A stretch of 64,000 bases of DNA from a virus, in IMG/VR virus record IMGVR_UViG_3300045120_000483, positions 40,882 to 104,881 of that record; one strand, 5' to 3'. Positions 9,359-58,370 of the stretch are shown here, in pieces. The notes below the pieces were generated by a model. The model ran no database searches and had not been told where the DNA came from. It worked only from the letters and a program-made list of their open reading frames with translations. The number at the start of each line of letters is the position of its first letter. Within the stretch, counting starts at the first letter, position 1. The position numbers and the translations under genes are program-made.

Positions 9359-10720
9359 TCATTTGATCCCGGCAAATAACCCTTTCAGGACTTCCTTCCC
9401 GGCATCCATTACCGGGACACTATCCTTTTCGGGTTTAATGTCGGCAGAAACATCAAAAAGTCGCATCTTATCCAGGTCCAAACCCAGATGAAACCTCAAA
9501 TAGTAGTCCTTACGATTGTAGCGATTCTTAATTTGTTTGATAAAAACCTGTTTCAGAGCATCAAGCTCTTCCGTTCGAACAATTGCCAGAATAATATCAG
9601 CGGCGGCGGCAAGACCAAAGGATTCAGAGATATGATGCATCTCCGGTTCAGAACTCTTAAACCCCTCCCTATTGAACTGAGTGGCAGAAACAATGGGAAC
9701 GTTAAACTCCTTGGCCAACCCCCTGATCTCTTGAGCAATGGCCTGAACATATTCATAGAGACCGACGTTACCAGAAAGTTTAATTCGGGAGGACTTGCAG
9801 ATATTTAGATAGTCGATGTAGATGATATCCGGAACAAACTTCTTCTTCAACTTCAATTCATTGAGAAGATGACGAAAATTATCGGCCCCCGCCGTTGCTT
9901 CATTGTACTCCTGAATAATCAGCTTACCGGGAGTCTTGTCCCACACCTTCTTGATCTTATTATGAAAAGCCGCCTTATCCAGCTTAACAAGATCATTCAG
10001 GGCAACATCCATCAGATTGGCATCGATACGCTCCGCAATAAGCTGTTCGGCCATCTCCATAGTAATGTAGAGGACATTAAATCCCCTGACCAAATTAGCA
10101 GCCGCCATATGACACATGAACAGCGACTTACCGAAACCAACACCCCCCATAAGAATATTAAGGGTCTTTCGAATCAGACCCCCCTTGGTAATCTTGTTCA
10201 TAATCTCTAAATCAAAGGGGATACGAACATGCTTTTCATGAAAAAATGAGTGTCGATCTTCCCAATCTTCAAAATAGTCATGACCAATATGAGAATCAAA
10301 AGAAACAGCTAGAGCATCCGACAAGATTTGGGGGATAGCTCCCCGCCCCAGCGTGTTACCCTTTTTGTTCTCCATAATCGACATGGCCTTGTACAGACCA
10401 TTCTCAATCGCCTTATCCTGACAGAACTTCTCTGAGGCATTGACCAACCAATCCAACTCAAGCTTCTTACCGTCATAGGTGTCAACAATAACCTGACAAC
10501 CCTTGGCGGTTTCTTCCGTCAGGTCCCGTCGATTATCAATTTCAATCTTGACGGCCTGAAGCTCCGGAGACTTATTATACTTATTGACATAATCCCGGAT
10601 GACCTCAAAGGCTATCCGTTCGGAACGATCATGAAAATATTCCGGTTGAATATGAGGAAGAACTTTTCGGGAGAAATCTTCATTCGAAATCAGATTGTGA
10701 AGTATAGTTTGTTCGATCAA
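9359..10720 (-). CDS. 41: replicative DNA helicase, gp41 (DnaB type), 453 aa
   Basis: Hexameric 5'-3' helicase that unwinds the fork and carries the primase. Walker A is GGVGFGKS (about residue 190) within ILMGGVGFGKSLFMCHMAA; the Walker B region reads PDIIYIDYLNI and the H4 region VSATQFNREGF. Length is close to T4 gp41 (475 aa). The start ATG overlaps the TGA of the macro-domain gene. Its loader gp59 and ssDNA-binding gp32 are encoded at 60.6-62.2 kb. Confidence 0.92.
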   Translation of the reverse strand: MIEQTILHNLISNEDFSRKVLPHIQPEYFHDRSERIAFEVIRDYVNKYNKSPELQAVKIEIDNRRDLTEETAKGCQVIVDTYDGKKLELDWLVNASEKFCQDKAIENGLYKAMSIMENKKGNTLGRGAIPQILSDALAVSFDSHIGHDYFEDWEDRHSFFHEKHVRIPFDLEIMNKITKGGLIRKTLNILMGGVGFGKSLFMCHMAAANLVRGFNVLYITMEMAEQLIAERIDANLMDVALNDLVKLDKAAFHNKIKKVWDKTPGKLIIQEYNEATAGADNFRHLLNELKLKKKFVPDIIYIDYLNICKSSRIKLSGNVGLYEYVQAIAQEIRGLAKEFNVPIVSATQFNREGFKSSEPEMHHISESFGLAAAADIILAIVRTEELDALKQVFIKQIKNRYNRKDYYLRFHLGLDLDKMRLFDVSADIKPEKDSVPVMDAGKEVLKGLFAGIK

Positions 10721-11214
10721 TTTTGGGGAATTTCCTCTCTAGAAAGAACATAAACAACCGGTTCGGCATGAAACATCGACTCCTGAATGATCTCTGAAAT
10801 GATCTTCCAATCGCCGCCCCCTAGACCGGCCCCGATCTTTGGCATTGCCACGGCCGTAAAAGCGGGACCTCCAAAGTTTCCATCATAACAGAACGTGTTC
10901 AAACGCCTCATACATTCCCGAATGGCATTGTAATCAACATACTGTTTGTTTTGACGACCATAGAATTCTTGTGTGATGCAGTTCGCAATTGCCTTACCGC
11001 CCGAATAAGCAAAGATGATATCCCCCGGAACGAAAGGAGTTGTATCTTTAAATTCCATTATTTTTTGGGCGTAAGTTCTATAGGCAGATGGAAAAGCTTG
11101 TTTGATAGCTAAGGCGACTCCGGCCCCCATCACACCTTGAGCATTACAGCCATGAGCTATTATCGGCTCCGGAGCTTTTGTCAAATTCCCCACAACATAT
11201 CGAATATTTGTCAT
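10717..11214 (-). CDS. macro-domain ADP-ribose-binding protein, 165 aa
   Basis: ATG 11214 has GGAG six bases upstream; an upstream TTG is less likely. The N-terminus VVGNL..PIIAHGCNAQG followed by VMGAGVALAI is the ADP-ribose-binding core of macro domains, and IGAGLGGGDW is the second phosphate-binding loop. The family binds or hydrolyses ADP-ribose, ADP-ribose 1''-phosphate or ADP-ribosyl groups. In a phage it could reverse defence ADP-ribosylation (as DarG does for DarT) or clear ADP-ribose signals; this is inference. It has its own promoter at 11234-11262. Confidence 0.88.
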   Translation of the reverse strand: MTNIRYVVGNLTKAPEPIIAHGCNAQGVMGAGVALAIKQAFPSAYRTYAQKIMEFKDTTPFVPGDIIFAYSGGKAIANCITQEFYGRQNKQYVDYNAIRECMRRLNTFCYDGNFGGPAFTAVAMPKIGAGLGGGDWKIISEIIQESMFHAEPVVYVLSREEIPQN

Positions 11215-11233
11215 ACACTTCTCCAAAACGACA

Positions 11234-23373: not shown

Positions 23374-23908
23374 ATTTTGCTAACACAAGCTCCTTGGAGA
23401 AATAATCAAAGTTAAAGGGGTAAAAACTCTCTCCCCCTTTCAGTCTAGAGTTTTGTTGGGGCTTTATTCGTCTATCAGAAATCACCTTCTCAGCTTCCTT
23501 CCGAAAAACATTAAGATCAAGCAAATGCCATAAAACTAGATGGCCCCCCGCCGCCTTATCTCTCCAATAATACAAAAACTGATCACCATTTCCCTCCATT
23601 ATTTTAGCATACTCCGTAACAATATAAGCATTGGGATAACCCAATCGAATGGTAAATTGACCCAGATAATTCCGATAGGCTTCTTTATAATCCCTACCCC
23701 GGGATGCAATGTTGATTATACATGAAAGATTATCAGCTTCTACGACCCAATCAGTAGCCAATTTCCGGTCTTCATGGCTAGAAGCTTCTCTAATCAACCG
23801 CCCCGGATTTAGCTCCTGTAAAAGTTTTCTAACCCGTAACTTGTAATCTTTTTCAAATGCTTGACGCTGAGTAAACGTATCTTTTTCATAAAGTTTTGTT
23901 GTTATCAT
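23348..23908 (-). CDS. protein of unknown function, 186 aa
   Basis: Mixed alpha/beta protein with DWVVEADNLSCIINIASRGR and DKAAGGHLVLWHLLDLNVFR. The spaced acidic and basic residues recall restriction-type PD-(D/E)xK folds, but no clear D..ExK triad is seen, so this is not claimed. ATGA overlap with the peptide deformylase gene. Confidence 0.6.
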   Translation of the reverse strand: MITTKLYEKDTFTQRQAFEKDYKLRVRKLLQELNPGRLIREASSHEDRKLATDWVVEADNLSCIINIASRGRDYKEAYRNYLGQFTIRLGYPNAYIVTEYAKIMEGNGDQFLYYWRDKAAGGHLVLWHLLDLNVFRKEAEKVISDRRIKPQQNSRLKGGESFYPFNFDYFSKELVLAKYDMAQPPY

Positions 23909-24432
23909 TTGGCGTATTTCATCATCCCTCTGTTGGAGTAATCATACTTACGCTTCTTCGCATCTTTGATAGAGCGGCTAAGTCTCAGCTTAGTAATACC
24001 TTCAAAAAACATCTTACCATCCAAATGACAAAGCTCATGTTGAGCAACCCGGGCGGACATACCCGTTAAGGTCCGGGAAAATGTCTCTCCATTTGGTCCC
24101 TGGAATCGAATACGAACTGAGGTTGAGCGGGGGACCTTGATAATCAGTCCCGGAAAGGATAAACACCCTTCCTCCAGGTTGTCTTTTTCTGGAGCAAAAT
24201 AAACAATCCGGGGGTTGAAGAAAACAAAGTCTTCCTGCGGACCTATCATCGCAAAGCAACGATAGGGAAGACCACACTGATTGGCGGCCAGACCATACCC
24301 ATTTCGGGAGTACATCGTCGCTACTAGATTAGTAGCTAATTCGGCTGGATCAATCGGGGGTTCATTAAAATCAAAATCCGGAACGGGCGTCGTCAGGAAC
24401 TCATCGTTATTCAGAGGGATGTCATATATCAC
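23905..24432 (-). CDS. def: peptide deformylase, 175 aa
   Basis: Removes the N-formyl group from nascent proteins. All three metal-site motifs are intact: GYGLAANQ (residues 45-52), EGCLS (88-92) and QHELCH (131-136). Length is that of bacterial enzymes rather than the shortened cyanophage forms. Together with the initiator-like tRNA and the release-factor-like gene it points to phage control of translation. Overlaps genes on both sides by 4 bases. Confidence 0.93.
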   Translation of the reverse strand: MIYDIPLNNDEFLTTPVPDFDFNEPPIDPAELATNLVATMYSRNGYGLAANQCGLPYRCFAMIGPQEDFVFFNPRIVYFAPEKDNLEEGCLSFPGLIIKVPRSTSVRIRFQGPNGETFSRTLTGMSARVAQHELCHLDGKMFFEGITKLRLSRSIKDAKKRKYDYSNRGMMKYAK

Positions 24433-35820: not shown

Positions 35821-36452
35821 ATGAAATTATACAAGTTGACTGATGAAAATTTTCAGACCAAAAACCAGACTCAATGGGGGGAGAACGTCACCCATGAAAC
35901 TGGTGGGGAAGGTGACCTATGCGGCCCCGGTTGGCTTCATGCCTACCTGAATCCTTATCTGGCGGTCCTTCTCTCCCCTTTACATGTTTTCTTTGAGCAT
36001 CCTGTTCTTTGGGAGGCGGAGGGGGATGGGACATTCAAATACGAACGCCAGCTTAAGGTGGGTTGTACTAAACTAACAACCCTCAAACAGATACCAATGC
36101 CGGTTGTAATGACTGATGATATAGGATCAAATTTGCTATTCTTTGTGCCAAAAAGGTTTGTAATGATGAGAAGTGGAACCTATGGGCCGACAAGTGGTTG
36201 AGCGGGGAAGATAGGAGCAGTGAGGCTACTTATGCTGCCTATGCTGTTAATGCTGCTACTTATGCAGCTAATGCTGCTACTTATGCAGCTAATGCTGCTA
36301 CTTATGCTGCTGCTGCTACTTATGCTGCTGCTGCTGCTAATGCTGCTGCTAATGCTGCTACTTATGCAGCTAATGCCGCTCATTATGCTGTTGGTGCTGG
36401 TGGTGTCCTTTTCGATCTTCTTGAGATTGTCAAGGAAATGTGGTCAGAATAA
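35821..36452 (+). pseudogene. Ala-repeat-tailed phage protein split by a frameshift
   Basis: The first frame (35821-36201) runs MKLYKLTDENFQTKNQTQWG to a premature end; the natural continuation (RIKFAILCAKKVCNDEKWNL...) is in the -1 frame and continues into the Ala/Tyr/Asn/Thr repeat tail ending at 36452. The switch lies at about 36117-36123. I recall intact homologues with this order (WGENVTH.., LKVGCT.., WNKWA.., Ala repeats), listed as DUF7666. The break may be a true mutation, an error or programmed slippage. Confidence 0.6.
36228..36390 (+). repeat. in-frame trinucleotide/hexamer repeat coding Tyr-Ala-Ala-Asn-Ala-Ala-Thr
   Basis: GCTGCT, AATGCTGCT and ACTTATGC units recur about a dozen times and encode the Ala-rich tail of the 35821 gene. 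Such repeats change length easily by slippage. Confidence 0.8.
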
Positions 36453-36472
36453 ATATACGTAGAGGAGTACTC

Positions 36473-37090
36473 ATGACCCGAAAGTTTTCCAGTTTCCTGA
36501 ACGAAGCCGCCCGAAAGTCCCTAAGCCGGGTACAATCTAAATTTGCCAATTCCAACGTGGGAATTATTACGGCCCACCGGGGTAATTACGACGACAAACC
36601 CGCCGAAGAGCACGCAGCCCATAACAATGTTCAGAATGGATACTTAGCTAAAGATATCCGTGCTCATGGTTTTGGGTTCCAACATATTCGGGGTCGTTTT
36701 ATTGAAAAACACGGTACCCCTGCGGCTCATCCGGTCGATGAGCACTCCTTCCTGGTCAGTCATCCCAACGCAAACAAGCTGAAGCACTTCCTAACGAAGC
36801 ACGGGGAGAAGTATGGTCAGGATTCGGTGCTGTTCAAGCACAAGGATTCGGAGCACGCCCACCTGATCGGGACCAAGGAAGGGGCCTTCCCCGGTAAGGG
36901 AGTAGAGCACTCCGTTGGTAAATTCCATGCCAATCGGTTTCCGGAGTTTCATAGTCTATTGCACCGGGGCGGGGATGCCAAGCCGGGGAAGACTGCCTCC
37001 ACCAAAAAAGGCTTTGCCTTTGAGGATTATGAGAACTTTGGGGTCTATATGCCGATTAGTTGGTTTTCCCGCCGGGAAGAACTCTATTAA
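36473..37090 (+). CDS. phage protein, 205 aa, unknown
   Basis: AGAGGAG precedes ATG 36473. Contains VGIITAHRGNYDDKPAEEHA, DIRAHGFGFQHIRGRF, HSFLVSHPNANKLKHFL and YGQDSVLFKHKDSEHAHLIG, an arrangement reminiscent of the DUF3293 family, though this is not certain. His-rich. AATAAATA 17 bases upstream suggests late expression. Function unknown. Confidence 0.65.
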   Translation: MTRKFSSFLNEAARKSLSRVQSKFANSNVGIITAHRGNYDDKPAEEHAAHNNVQNGYLAKDIRAHGFGFQHIRGRFIEKHGTPAAHPVDEHSFLVSHPNANKLKHFLTKHGEKYGQDSVLFKHKDSEHAHLIGTKEGAFPGKGVEHSVGKFHANRFPEFHSLLHRGGDAKPGKTASTKKGFAFEDYENFGVYMPISWFSRREELY

Positions 37091-40968: not shown

Positions 40969-41039
40969 CGCGGGGTAGAGGAGTAGTTCCTTGCCAGCCT
41001 CATAAGCTGGAGACATCGGTGCAAGTCCGGTCCACGCAA
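40969..41039 (+). tRNA. initiator-like tRNA-Met(CAT)
   Basis: CGCGGGG at the 5' end with an unpaired C1 opposite A72, the hallmark of bacterial tRNA-fMet; anticodon arm CCAGC-CTCATAA-GCTGG; T-arm ATCGG-TGCAAGT-CCGGT; A73 and encoded CCA. The three G-C pairs usual in the fMet anticodon stem are not all present, so initiator status is likely but not certain. Confidence 0.8.
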
Positions 41040-41047
41040 CCATTAAT

Positions 41048-41128
41048 GGGCAAGGCGCGGTCTGGGAACCCAGAGAGTCTGTAAAACTCACGCTTATAGC
41101 TAGAGAGGTTCGATTCCTCTTTTGCCCA
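41048..41128 (+). tRNA. tRNA-Tyr(GTA)
   Basis: Class II tRNA: acceptor GGGCAAG/TTTGCCC, anticodon loop CTGTAAA, long variable arm, T-arm AGAGG-TTCGATT-CCTCT, encoded CCA. Confidence 0.9.
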
Positions 41129-41132
41129 CCAT

Positions 41133-41211
41133 TTTCTACTCAGGTTCGAATCCTGACGTTCAAGGACAGTCTATAGGCGAACGAACACTTGCGGAGATCG
41201 GTCAGTAGAAA
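41133..41211 (+). ncRNA. tRNA-like RNA, possibly circularly permuted
   Basis: Closed by TTTCTACT (41133-41140) with AGTAGAAA (41204-41211). A perfect T-arm TCAGG-TTCGAAT-CCTGA comes first, then CGTTC/GAACG as a putative acceptor, then a D-like arm with GG in its loop. Order is T-arm, acceptor, D-arm. No CCA and almost no variable loop. Confidence 0.4.
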
Positions 41212-41220
41212 TTCATTTAT

Positions 41221-41294
41221 GGGACTGTAGCTCAATTGGGAGAGCAACGCTTTTGCAAAGCGAAGGTTGTGGGTTCAAGTCCCACCTGTTTCCA
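41221..41294 (+). tRNA. tRNA-Ala(TGC), copy 1
   Basis: GGGACTG acceptor start, D-arm GCTC/GAGC, anticodon loop TTTGCAA, T-arm GTGGG-TTCAAGT-CCCAC, A73 and encoded CCA. The lower acceptor has mismatches. Confidence 0.85.
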
Positions 41295-41301
41295 CCATTA
41301 T

Positions 41302-41362
41302 GGAGGGGTACCGGCCGCCTCCGGATACGCTGGTCTCAAAGACCGTGAAAAGACCTCCACCA
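41302..41362 (+). ncRNA. two-armed tRNA-like RNA ending in CCA
   Basis: GGAGG (41302) pairs with CCTCC (41354), followed by A and CCA. Inside are only two hairpins (CCGG-CCGCCT-CCGG and GGTC-TCAAA-GACC) and no T-arm. A similar element with the same TTATGGAGGGGT start lies at 51672. The following ORF could in principle begin here, but its better ribosome site is at 41387. Confidence 0.4.
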
Positions 41363-41386
41363 AATTCTTATTATGGGAGAAAAGGA

Positions 41387-41944: not shown

Positions 41945-42024
41945 AGTAGGCAAGGGGGCTAGCCTCCGGTCGGTACTCTAGACCGGTGACCAACACAAAT
42001 CGTTGGTCTGATAAATGGCCCTCA
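41945..42024 (+). ncRNA. structured RNA between tRNAs, two strong hairpins
   Basis: Hairpins CCGGTC/GACCGG and GACCAAC/GTTGGTC lie within a weaker GGGGGC/GCCCTC closure. No T-loop and no CCA; not assignable to a tRNA. Confidence 0.3.
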
Positions 42025-42031
42025 AATTTAA

Positions 42032-43409: not shown

Positions 43410-43464
43410 GTGGATGGGAAGCGCGTTGTGTTTTCGTCTTTCAACAAAAGCGGTCCCGTCCATT
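43410..43464 (+). ncRNA. structured RNA directly after the promoter
   Basis: TGGATGGGA near the start pairs with TCCCGTCCA at the end (9 bp). The inner loop has GTTG/CAAC. No tRNA arms are recognised. Confidence 0.35.
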
Positions 43465-43466
43465 CT

Positions 43467-43553
43467 TGTTCTTAATTGTGGAATACCTTGCTGTTCAAGG
43501 GCTTATGCAAGGGATAGACTTTGTAAGAAGGCGGTATTCCACAGTTAAGAACA
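43467..43553 (+). ncRNA. RNA with a 21-bp closing stem
   Basis: TGTTCTTAA-T-TGTGGAATACC (43467-43487) pairs over its full length with GGTATTCCACA-G-TTAAGAACA (43533-43553), with one T.G wobble. The head holds a CCTTGC/GCAAGG hairpin and a second stem. A possible RNase III substrate and processing signal for the adjoining tRNA-like RNA. Confidence 0.45.
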
Positions 43554-43554
43554 T

Positions 43555-43642
43555 GGTGTTCCTGGCTGGCTTAATCTAAGCTTCCCACAAGTCGCTTAGA
43601 ACGTTTTGTGGAACGTAAGGAAGGGTTCGAATCTCTTCGACA
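43555..43642 (+). ncRNA. tRNA-like RNA with Leu(TAG)-type loop on a long anticodon arm
   Basis: Acceptor GGTGTTC/CGACACC, T-arm AAGGG-TTCGAAT-CTCTT and anticodon loop CTTAGAA are regular, but the anticodon arm extends to about 12 positions (CCACAAGTCG with CGTTTTGTGG). No CCA is encoded. The same loop occurs in the normal tRNA-Leu at 42241. Confidence 0.45.
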
Positions 43643-43798: not shown

Positions 43799-43802
43799 CC
43801 AG

Positions 43803-44008
43803 AGATAACGGTGTTGTCGCACCGTAGCCCGGTTTGACGGGCTTAAAGGATAGCAGTAGCGATACTGTCAAAGTAAGGAAGCTTACAGCCTTACACCGGA
43901 GCAATCCGGCCCATTCAAGCAGGTCCGGTTCACCCGAAAGGGCAGTCATACTAGACTGTGGCGGGAAGCAGGACGATGAGGAGACAAGACCCGAAAGGGA
44001 TAAGAATA
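43803..44008 (+). ncRNA. multi-hairpin structured RNA of about 205 nt
   Basis: At least eight successive hairpins, four capped by GNRA loops: CGGTG/CACCG, AGCCCG/CGGGCT, CAGTA-GCGA-TACTG, GTAAGG/GCCTTAC, CCGGA-GCAA-TCCGG, CCC-GAAA-GGG, CAGTC/GACTG and a second CCC-GAAA-GGG. No coding frame of interest. Resembles a compact structured ncRNA rather than tRNA; family unknown. Confidence 0.5.
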
Positions 44009-47384: not shown

Positions 47385-47393
47385 CCAAAATTA

Positions 47394-47458
47394 TGCGGAG
47401 TTCCGATCTGGAAGTAACAAGAACTAATAGGATTTATCCTGATTAGTCCTCCGCACCA
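47394..47458 (+). ncRNA. two-armed tRNA-like RNA ending in CCA
   Basis: TGCGGAG (47394) pairs perfectly with CTCCGCA before CCA. Inside are only a D-like TTCC-GATCT-GGAA and a 10-bp hairpin (ACTAAT..AGGA-TTTA-TCCT..ATTAGT). No T-arm or anticodon loop. Confidence 0.4.
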
Positions 47459-47463
47459 AGTTT

Positions 47464-47536
47464 ACCCGTAGATGCTGCTAGTTGTGGCAGAATGATTGTC
47501 AATCATTTGAGTGGAGGGCAGAACTCCATACGGGTG
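47464..47536 (+). tRNA. tRNA-Asp(GTC) with variant T-loop
   Basis: Acceptor ACCCGTA/TACGGGT, anticodon arm AATGA-TTGTCAA-TCATT, T-stem TGGAG/CTCCA with loop GGCAGAA, G73 as expected for Asp, encoded CCA. D-loop without GG. Confidence 0.8.
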
Positions 47537-47544
47537 CCATTTAA

Positions 47545-47601
47545 GGGGTCGGGTATATTGGTACCAGATAAGATGCGGTAAAAGTCCGTCTCACCCCACC
47601 A
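47545..47601 (+). ncRNA. tRNA-like RNA without an anticodon arm, CCA end
   Basis: GGGGT..ACCCC acceptor, D-like hairpin GGTA-TATTGG-TACC, an 8-base linker, T-like hairpin GCGG-TAAAAGT-CCGT, A73 and CCA. 57 nt in all. Confidence 0.4.
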
Positions 47602-47606
47602 AGTCA

Positions 47607-47675
47607 GGAAGAAACATCGGTGCAAATCCGGTACAGATAACGGTTTCTGTTCGTCCAGTAGACTAGGACGCTTCC
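47607..47675 (+). ncRNA. circularly permuted tRNA-like gene 1
   Basis: Order along the strand: GGAAG (39-43 position), AAAC, T-arm ATCGG-TGCAAAT-CCGGT, 3' acceptor strand ACAGATA, ACGG, 5' acceptor strand TTTCTGT, TC, D-arm GTCC-AGTAGACTA-GGAC, G, CTTCC (27-31 position). CTTCC pairs with GGAAG, so all four stems form but the chain is opened at the anticodon loop. The T-arm is almost identical to that of the initiator-like tRNA. Confidence 0.6.
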
Positions 47676-47683
47676 GCTCCTAC

Positions 47684-47757
47684 CTGGGTATAGCTTTCCC
47701 CTAAGAGTGGTTTCTGGGGGTAAAGGGTGAGCGTCCCATAAAAAACGGAACCCACTA
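47684..47757 (+). ncRNA. structured RNA between the two permuted genes
   Basis: TGGGT/ACCCA closure, a long CTTTCCCC/GGGG..AAAG arm and GGG-TGAGCGT-CCC. Not assignable to a standard tRNA. Confidence 0.25.
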
Positions 47758-47765
47758 ATTTTGAG

Positions 47766-47846
47766 CTAGGGGGAGATACGGTTCGATTCCGATACTAGTC
47801 GCGCGTGAAAGCTAGTTGGACCTAATGGATATGGTCGCCCCCGTTA
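47766..47846 (+). ncRNA. circularly permuted tRNA-like gene 2
   Basis: Order: GGGGG (47769-47773), AGAT, T-arm with canonical loop TTCGATT, 3' acceptor strand ACTAGTC, 9-base linker, 5' acceptor strand AGCTAGT, TG, D-arm GACC-TAATGGATAT-GGTC with canonical GG, G, CCCCC, GTTA. CCCCC pairs with GGGGG. The next tRNA starts at 47847, so the 5' half ends with GTTA. No CCA. Confidence 0.65.
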
Positions 47847-47934
47847 CCCGTCTAGAACTGGTGTTCAGAGGAGCCTTATAAACTCTTTGCTCCGGACTGG
47901 AGTCTTTGGCGCGGATCGTAACCGTGAGGCGGGA
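47847..47934 (+). tRNA. class II tRNA with anticodon TAT
   Basis: Acceptor CCCGTCT/AGGCGGG, anticodon loop CTTATAA, variable arm CTCC-GGACT-GGAG, T-stem CGCGG/CCGTG with loop ATCGTAA, A73, encoded CCA. TAT reads Ile AUA, but a long variable arm is foreign to tRNA-Ile, so amino-acid identity is uncertain. Confidence 0.65.
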
Positions 47935-47953
47935 CCAATTTAAGGAGTCTGTT

Positions 47954-58019: not shown

Positions 58020-58030
58020 TGATTGTTGCT

Positions 58031-58091
58031 AGATGAAATAGCTACTAGGTAGCAGGATACCCGGGGCGCGACCCCCCGGCATCTCCACCAA
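58031..58091 (+). ncRNA. tRNA-like RNA without an anticodon arm, CCA end
   Basis: AGATG/CATCT acceptor, D-arm-like TA-GCTAC-TAG-GTAGC, T-arm-like CCGGGG/CCCCGG, then A and CCA. 61 nt, same plan as the 47545 RNA. Confidence 0.4.
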
Positions 58092-58172
58092 GGGCTCACT
58101 AGGCTTCCTGTACAAGGTTCTGATCAAACCTCCAGGTAAGAGCTTCGAAATTAGACTACTAGTGAGCCTTTG
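58091..58172 (+). ncRNA. tRNA-like RNA with Ile(GAT)-type loop inside a 13-bp stem
   Basis: AAGGGCTCACTAG (58091-58103) pairs with CTAGTGAGCCTTT (58160-58172), one wobble. Inside is a perfect anticodon-type arm AGGTT-CTGATCA-AACCT. D- and T-arms are not recognisable. No CCA. Confidence 0.45.
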
Positions 58173-58370
58173 GGGGGGATGAGCAGGTTCGATCTTGTAC
58201 TGAAAAGGTTGTGGATAGCGACTCACTGGCCAAGTGGCCGTAAACTAACCGGCAACACTCTTGTAGCCGATAATGACAACTCTTTCGGTGAGCTTGCGCT
58301 TGCTGCCTAAGTTGGCATAATCTGGGGTCTGGAACCGTACCTTATTACCCAAACGGTTCACTTCCCTCTT
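58173..58370 (+). ncRNA. gene-free stretch with further stems
   Basis: GGCC-AAGT-GGCC, CTCAC/GTGAG and a CTTGTAC able to pair back to GTACAAG at 58111 are visible; a TTCGATC loop lies at about 58199. Probably the rest of the same RNA unit. Confidence 0.25.

What the first reader, a model, noticed from the sequence alone, without database searches (positions are those of the whole stretch)
47766..47846. Circularly permuted tRNA gene in a phage (gene 2)
Seen in sequence: a T-arm with canonical loop TTCGATT and the 3' acceptor strand ACTAGTC come first. A 9-base linker, the 5' acceptor strand AGCTAGT, TG and a perfect D-arm GACC-TAATGGATAT-GGTC follow. The first and last elements, GGGGG and CCCCC, sit where the anticodon stem should be and pair with each other. 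D-loop GG and T-loop TTC, which make the tRNA elbow, are both intact. Permuted tRNAs are known from some algae and archaea, where a circular precursor is spliced; I know of no phage case. No CCA is encoded and the anticodon junction cannot be read.
Basis: partly seen in the sequence, partly recalled or inferred. Interest (0 to 1): 0.9.

Follow-up and report, generated by a model that had tools for sequence, protein, structure and literature searches.

The report
Permuted tRNA mimics in a phage
A phage's tRNA gene cluster holds two neighbouring RNA genes that fold like a tRNA with its halves swapped; this is the layout of the bacterial 'Y RNA' tRNA mimics, which turn out to be common in phages, so a tRNA look-alike is more likely than a tRNA needing exotic circular splicing.

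Summary
Gene 2 is at 47769-47842: a cloverleaf in permuted order. A second permuted cloverleaf ('gene 1') lies just upstream at 47607-47675. They rank first and second of all permuted-tRNA matches on both strands of the 64 kb, and 0 of 400 shuffles reach either score.

The interpretation needs changing. The same order (closing stem, T-arm, acceptor hairpin, D-arm) is the consensus structure of bacterial Y RNAs (YrlA, RF02553), known tRNA mimics that need no splicing. I found about 25 such elements in phage contigs; Rfam matches 8 of them to YrlA below threshold in the five loci scanned. 7 of 16 IMG/VR records carrying one encode the Y RNA partner Ro60/TROVE, against 2 of 31 other records.

Genes 1 and 2 share that fold but not the Ro60-binding stem, the family match or a Ro60 gene in the held 105 kb, so I do not file them as YrlA. 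They lack the CCA that 25 of 27 ordinary tRNAs of this phage encode, have no readable anticodon, and no RtcB was found. Best reading: non-decoding tRNA mimics of Y-RNA layout (0.45). Rivals: tRNA relics, true permuted tRNA genes, chance.

The parts
47769..47773 (+). gene 2: 5' strand of closing (anticodon-position) stem, GGGGG
47779..47791 (+). gene 2: T-arm CGG-TTCGATT-CCG (3 pairs; canonical loop)
47794..47800 (+). gene 2: 3' acceptor strand ACTAGTC, no CCA after it
47801..47809 (+). gene 2: linker GCGCGTGAA (loop of the acceptor hairpin)
47810..47816 (+). gene 2: 5' acceptor strand AGCTAGT (6 of 7 pairs with 47794-47800, one G.U)
47819..47836 (+). gene 2: D-arm GACC-TAATGGATAT-GGTC
47838..47842 (+). 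gene 2: 3' strand of closing stem, CCCCC
47607..47675 (+). gene 1: second permuted cloverleaf, ggaag AAAC [ATCGG TGCAAAT CCGGT] ACAGATA (ACGG) TTTCTGT TC <GTCC AGTAGACTA GGAC> G cttcc
   Evidence: T-arm 18/19 identical to the phage's tRNA-Met at 41013-41031
47545..47605 (+). neighbouring tRNA-like element with acceptor, D-arm, T-arm and CCA but no anticodon arm, directly upstream of gene 1
   Evidence: MFE fold; read by eye
47851..47935 (+). neighbouring ordinary-order tRNA-like element starting 8 bases after gene 2 (14-base anticodon loop if read as GGAGC/GCTCC)
   Evidence: read by eye, its MFE does not show the cloverleaf
58027..58310 (+). permuted two-piece tmRNA of the same phage (RF04321), with encoded CCA

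Best explanation
Genes 1 and 2 encode two small tRNA-mimic RNAs. Each folds, as an ordinary linear transcript, into a tRNA body whose chain ends lie at the anticodon position: closing stem, T-arm, acceptor hairpin closed by a short loop, D-arm. This is the layout of the tRNA-like module of bacterial Y RNAs (YrlA). They are most likely not matured into decoding tRNAs. They would present a tRNA elbow and acceptor-like helix to proteins that recognise tRNA bodies, as the YrlA module does to PNPase and to the tRNA-modifying enzymes DusA and TruB. Shown: the fold, its duplication, the lack of CCA and of a readable anticodon, and the same layout in phage YrlA-like RNAs elsewhere. Inferred: expression, protein partner and mimic function.
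For: Two adjacent copies are ranks 1 and 2 of the window, 0 of 400 shuffles. Gene 1's MFE is the permuted cloverleaf. Rfam's YrlA consensus has exactly this element order; a review describes YrlA as a basal stem plus a tRNA-like domain bound by PNPase and modified by DusA and TruB (PMC8394870). About 25 phage elements with this order were found, with covariation in every helix, including the closing stem that was not used to select them, and next to Ro60/TROVE in six loci. Where a full array could be read (L191), ordinary tRNA-Asn and tRNA-Cys are already present, so the permuted copies there are not needed for decoding. Genes 1 and 2 lack CCA while 25 of 27 ordinary tRNAs of this phage have it. 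No RtcB. Little similarity of gene 2 to any ordinary tRNA of the window, yet stems intact.
Against: No Rfam YrlA match at genes 1 and 2 even at E 10. My phage YrlA-like core model gives gene 2 only 11.5 bits (E 0.04) and does not find gene 1. No Ro60-binding-type outer helix or its motifs flank them. No TROVE in the held 105 kb, though the record is a fragment. Gene 2's MFE is not the cloverleaf. No homologue of genes 1 or 2 themselves was found, so covariation could not be tested for them directly.
Confidence: 0.45

Rival explanations
1. Relics of tRNA-array decay: tandem duplication of a tRNA followed by loss of the outer halves leaves 3' half then 5' half; no function.
For: The patch 47390-47940 holds other odd tRNA-like elements (no anticodon arm at 47545-47605, a possible 14-base anticodon loop at 47851-47935). 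Gene 1's T-arm is nearly that of the phage's tRNA-Met. No conserved flanks.
Against: Two different permuted elements side by side need two independent events. Gene 2 has diverged from every tRNA of the window yet keeps 18 of 21 pairs, gene 1 20 of 21.
Confidence: 0.25
2. True permuted tRNA genes: the ends are cut in the anticodon loop and joined, RNase P and a 3' nuclease remove the linker, CCA is added, and a decoding tRNA results (algal/archaeal route). In a variant the acceptor end is processed but the nick is never sealed, as in the permuted two-piece tmRNA of the same phage.
For: 5/5 closing pairs in both genes. Anticodon-loop junctions are the commonest type in known permuted tRNAs and linkers of 1-74 bp are known (PMC3978253). 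Elsewhere in phages, joining the halves at 28/29 gives canonical anticodon arms, e.g. tRNA-Asn and tRNA-Lys.
Against: No CCA; no junction gives U33 in gene 1, or U33 with a purine 37 in gene 2 (and reading of the flanks); no bulge-helix-bulge seen; no RtcB in the held genome or in the 13 permuted-bearing records searched. The T4 Rnl1 search was uninformative.
Confidence: 0.15
3. Chance assembly of tRNA-like pieces in a tRNA-rich region.
For: tRNA arrays are rich in T- and D-arms; chimeric hits of neighbouring tRNAs reach 30.5 bits with the same model, above gene 2's 20.3. Gene 2's MFE differs.
Against: 0 of 400 shuffles reach either score. Neither gene overlaps an ordinary tRNA found by ARAGORN or Rfam. 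Joint stem complementarity occurs in 1 of 342 tRNA pairs, and it is met twice within 240 bases.
Confidence: 0.1
4. Full members of the YrlA Y RNA family with a Ro60-binding stem and a Ro60 protein encoded in the missing part of the genome or by the host.
For: Same module order as YrlA; the genome record may be incomplete.
Against: Ro60-binding stem and motifs not found; CM search negative; no TROVE in the held part.
Confidence: 0.05

Closest known systems
YrlA, bacterial Y RNA (Rfam RF02553)
   Same: Order closing stem, variable stretch, T-arm, acceptor hairpin, two bases, D-arm, closing stem; acceptor capped by a short loop; linear RNA.
   Different: No Ro60-binding basal stem, no family-level score, no TROVE gene in the held part; closing stem 5 bp against 4 in the Rfam model.
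Circularly permuted tRNA genes of algae and Thermofilum (PMC3978253)
   Same: 3' half before 5' half; anticodon-loop junction is the commonest type there.
   Different: Those have U33 and readable anticodons and BHB motifs for the splicing endonuclease; none of these was seen here.
Permuted two-piece tmRNA (RF04321), present in the same phage at 58027-58310
   Same: Circularly permuted gene with a linker at the acceptor end.
   Different: The tmRNA here encodes CCA; genes 1 and 2 have a 4-bp D-stem and no tag region or CCA.

Membership tests
YrlA Y RNA (RF02553) | tRNA-like module in permuted order | tested here: met
   same element order
YrlA Y RNA (RF02553) | covariance-model score of the family | tested here: not met
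   no YrlA match at E<=10; own phage-YrlA-like model, gene 2 11.5 bits, gene 1 none
YrlA Y RNA (RF02553) | basal 5'/3' stem for Ro60/Rsr | tested here: not met
   no outer helix beyond chance, no CAGCAA/TACTTC-type motif
YrlA Y RNA (RF02553) | Ro60/TROVE protein encoded with it or by the host | tested here: inconclusive
   none in the held 105 kb; genome possibly incomplete, host unknown
circularly permuted tRNA gene | 3' half precedes 5' half with complementary acceptor and anticodon stems | tested here: met
circularly permuted tRNA gene | joined anticodon loop of 7 with U33 and a readable anticodon | tested here: not met
   and reading of the flanks: gene 1 has no U33 at any junction; gene 2 junctions with U33 lack purine 37
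circularly permuted tRNA gene | splicing machinery or BHB at the junction | tested here: inconclusive
   no RtcB in the held part; no BHB seen by inspection; T4 Rnl1 search uninformative
circularly permuted tRNA gene | circular or ligated transcript | not testable with these tools
   needs RNA-seq
functional tRNA of this phage | encoded CCA | tested here: not met
   25 of 27 ordinary tRNAs have CCA directly after position 73; after the acceptor strand gene 1 reads ACGG and gene 2 GCGC
permuted tmRNA (RF04321) | tmRNA-type D-loop without a stem, tag coding region | tested here: not met
   4-bp D-stems in both genes; the real permuted tmRNA is at 58027-58310

The most novel reading that the evidence does not exclude
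Genes 1 and 2, and the phage elements whose halves join at 28/29 into canonical tRNA-Asn, -Lys and -Ile arms (6 of 26 elements with encoded NCCA), are genuine permuted tRNA genes of bacterial viruses, matured by cutting and joining or used as nicked two-piece tRNAs, possibly handled by the Ro60 partner.
Probability: 0.12. Interest if true: 0.9.

Novelty: new variant of a known kind. Interest (0 to 1): 0.5.

Why it matters
Permuted tRNA-like RNAs appear to be a hidden and common part of phage tRNA arrays that standard tRNA finders miss. Several sit beside a phage-encoded Ro60 and keep a whole anticodon arm, so phages may carry their own Ro60-Y RNA machinery for RNA decay, tRNA repair or decoy of tRNA-cutting defences. 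That is testable in an isolated phage (Bacillus phage G). The window's pair suggests that the same fold can occur without the Ro60 stem. If any of these were really joined into tRNAs, they would be the first permuted tRNA genes in bacteria or their viruses that I know of.

Tried and rejected
Homologues of genes 1 and 2 by blastn in named phages: none. Relatives through the SSB, polymerase, RusA-like and 62232-63272 proteins: none close; permuted-model hits in those relatives were chimeras of tandem ordinary tRNAs. R2's best window hit, 41133-41248, joins an orphan T-arm to the D-arm of the ordinary tRNA-Ala at 41221 and is rejected as a chimera. Splicing-ligase idea: RtcB in 0 of 13 permuted-bearing records and 2 of 31 others. 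T4 Rnl1 search uninformative because its control also failed. Group-I-intron-flanked permutation was considered for the phage elements and dropped: flanks too short, and Ro60/YrlA fits. The first MAFFT alignment of permuted tRNAs was misaligned and was replaced by a gapless one.

Full report
What is there. The window is part of a 104,881-base virus record. Its replication genes (DnaB-like helicase, UvsX, sliding clamp, SSB, gp59) are of T4 type, and for one protein the nearest named relative is Caulobacter phage Cr30 (43% identity). A tRNA array runs from 40.0 to 55.3 kb, with a permuted tmRNA at 58027-58310. Gene 2 of the finding is confirmed at 47769-47842, a few bases from the stated coordinates; its T-stem has only three pairs. 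Gene 1 is at 47607-47675.

More than chance. A descriptor that demands a T-arm, then a complementary acceptor hairpin, then a D-arm, then a closing stem ranks gene 1 (38.3) and gene 2 (36.0) first and second on both strands of 64 kb. The following hits are chimeras with adjacent ordinary tRNAs or background. None of 400 dinucleotide shuffles reaches 36.0. A covariance model made from the phage's own tRNAs, rewritten in permuted order, scores gene 1 at 34.8 bits and gene 2 at 20.3 bits. That model also rewards tandem ordinary tRNAs (up to 30.5 bits), so gene 2's score alone is not decisive; the argument rests on both elements lying outside any ordinary tRNA and having matching closing and acceptor stems. 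Among 342 ordered pairs of this phage's tRNAs, one would by accident show both a 5/5 closing stem and at least 6/7 acceptor pairs. Gene 1's MFE is the permuted cloverleaf; gene 2's cloverleaf (-20.1) is slightly above its MFE (-22.7).

Looking wider. A pattern for a T-arm followed by a D-arm brought 120 phage contigs. After removing ordinary tRNAs, about 25 elements remained with T-arm, complementary acceptor hairpin and D-arm in permuted order. The acceptor stems were part of the selection, so their covariation is partly circular. The two closing pairs were not selected for, and they still pair in 78% of cells with changes on both sides. Many elements have an outer helix joining leader and trailer, with CAGCAA, TACTTC or CCTTC next to it.

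What the wider class is. Rfam below threshold matches 8 of the elements in the five loci scanned to YrlA, the bacterial Y RNA (46 to 27 bits). Rfam's YrlA structure line has the same order: basal stem, closing stem, T-arm, acceptor hairpin, D-arm. Ro60/TROVE, the protein partner of Y RNAs, is encoded in 7 of 16 IMG/VR records with such an element and in 2 of 31 other array-bearing records. In L132, L165, L191, L204 and L145 the element lies directly upstream of the TROVE ORF on the same strand, and in L139 about 0.6 kb upstream. Bacillus phage G has a 65.8-bit element at 405234-405317, about 2.1 kb upstream of its annotated TROVE gene gp540. The review in PMC8394870 describes YrlA as a basal stem for Rsr plus a tRNA-like domain that binds PNPase and is modified by DusA and TruB. 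PMC7824862 notes TROVE proteins, which elsewhere work with a tRNA-like partner, in some jumbo phages. I read no primary YrlA paper; none was held.

A twist in the wider class. Several elements carry a complete anticodon arm across the gap. Joining the halves at 28/29 gives canonical arms with anticodons GTT, TTT and TAT (for example L191 tRNA-Asn, L165 tRNA-Lys, L110 tRNA-Ile). Six of 26 have NCCA after the acceptor strand (one search lists five; phage G's ACCA is read). Yet ordinary tRNA-Asn and -Cys genes are already present in L191 and tRNA-Phe in L130, and RtcB is absent from all 13 records searched. I therefore read them as Y RNAs that mimic a whole tRNA, while not excluding real permuted tRNAs.

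Back to genes 1 and 2. They share the module order but not the YrlA sequence family, the outer Ro60 stem or a TROVE gene in the held part. They also fail as tRNA genes: no CCA (25 of 27 ordinary tRNAs have it), no acceptable anticodon loop at any junction (and reading of the flanks), no RtcB. Relics are possible, because the neighbourhood contains other odd tRNA-like elements, but two different permuted relics side by side, diverged yet still paired, are hard to explain. The best-supported reading is a pair of non-decoding tRNA mimics with Y-RNA layout.

Limits. No homologue of genes 1 and 2 was found, so selection on their pairs is inferred from divergence with intact stems. Expression and partners are untested. 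The host is unknown and the genome may be incomplete. The literature search covered only open-licence PMC papers.

Noticed in passing
L235:1479-1600 (Bacillus phage G JN638751, about 405234-405317): Unannotated YrlA-like RNA (65.8 bits with model R2) about 2.1 kb upstream of gp540 TROVE; encodes ACCA after its acceptor strand and can join at 28/29 into a complete tRNA body.
   Followed up: partly
L132, L139, L145, L165, L191, L204: YrlA-like elements upstream of phage Ro60/TROVE ORFs on the same strand, mostly directly adjacent.
   Followed up: partly
L191:4912, L165:4716, L110:6582, L192:9887: Phage Y-RNA-like elements that keep a full anticodon arm with canonical anticodons; junction repeatedly between positions 28 and 29. 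Could be decoys for anticodon nucleases.
   Followed up: partly
L130:8971-9618 and 9652-9724: A ROOL RNA is followed within 35 bases by a permuted tRNA-like element.
   Followed up: no
window 58027-58310: Permuted two-piece tmRNA (RF04321) with a long helix in its linker and encoded CCA.
   Followed up: no
window 41126-41220: Orphan canonical T-arm (TCAGG TTCGAAT CCTGA) with an 8-bp closing stem TTTCTACT/AGTAGAAA and CGTTC/GAACG, but a poor D-arm; possible third element.
   Followed up: partly
window 47397-47459, 47545-47605, 47851-47935, 41310-41364, 41945-42026: tRNA-like elements lacking arms or with enlarged loops inside the array (41945-42026 folds with z -3.4).
   Followed up: partly
window 43800-44005 and 43467-43552: Strongly structured non-coding stretches (z -3.9 for 43800-44005; z -4.5 for 43428-43560, which contains a long hairpin); no Rfam match.
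   Followed up: no
window 10717-11226, 23905-24432, 36440-37090: Macro-domain protein, peptide deformylase and S-adenosylmethionine-lyase-like protein.
   Followed up: no
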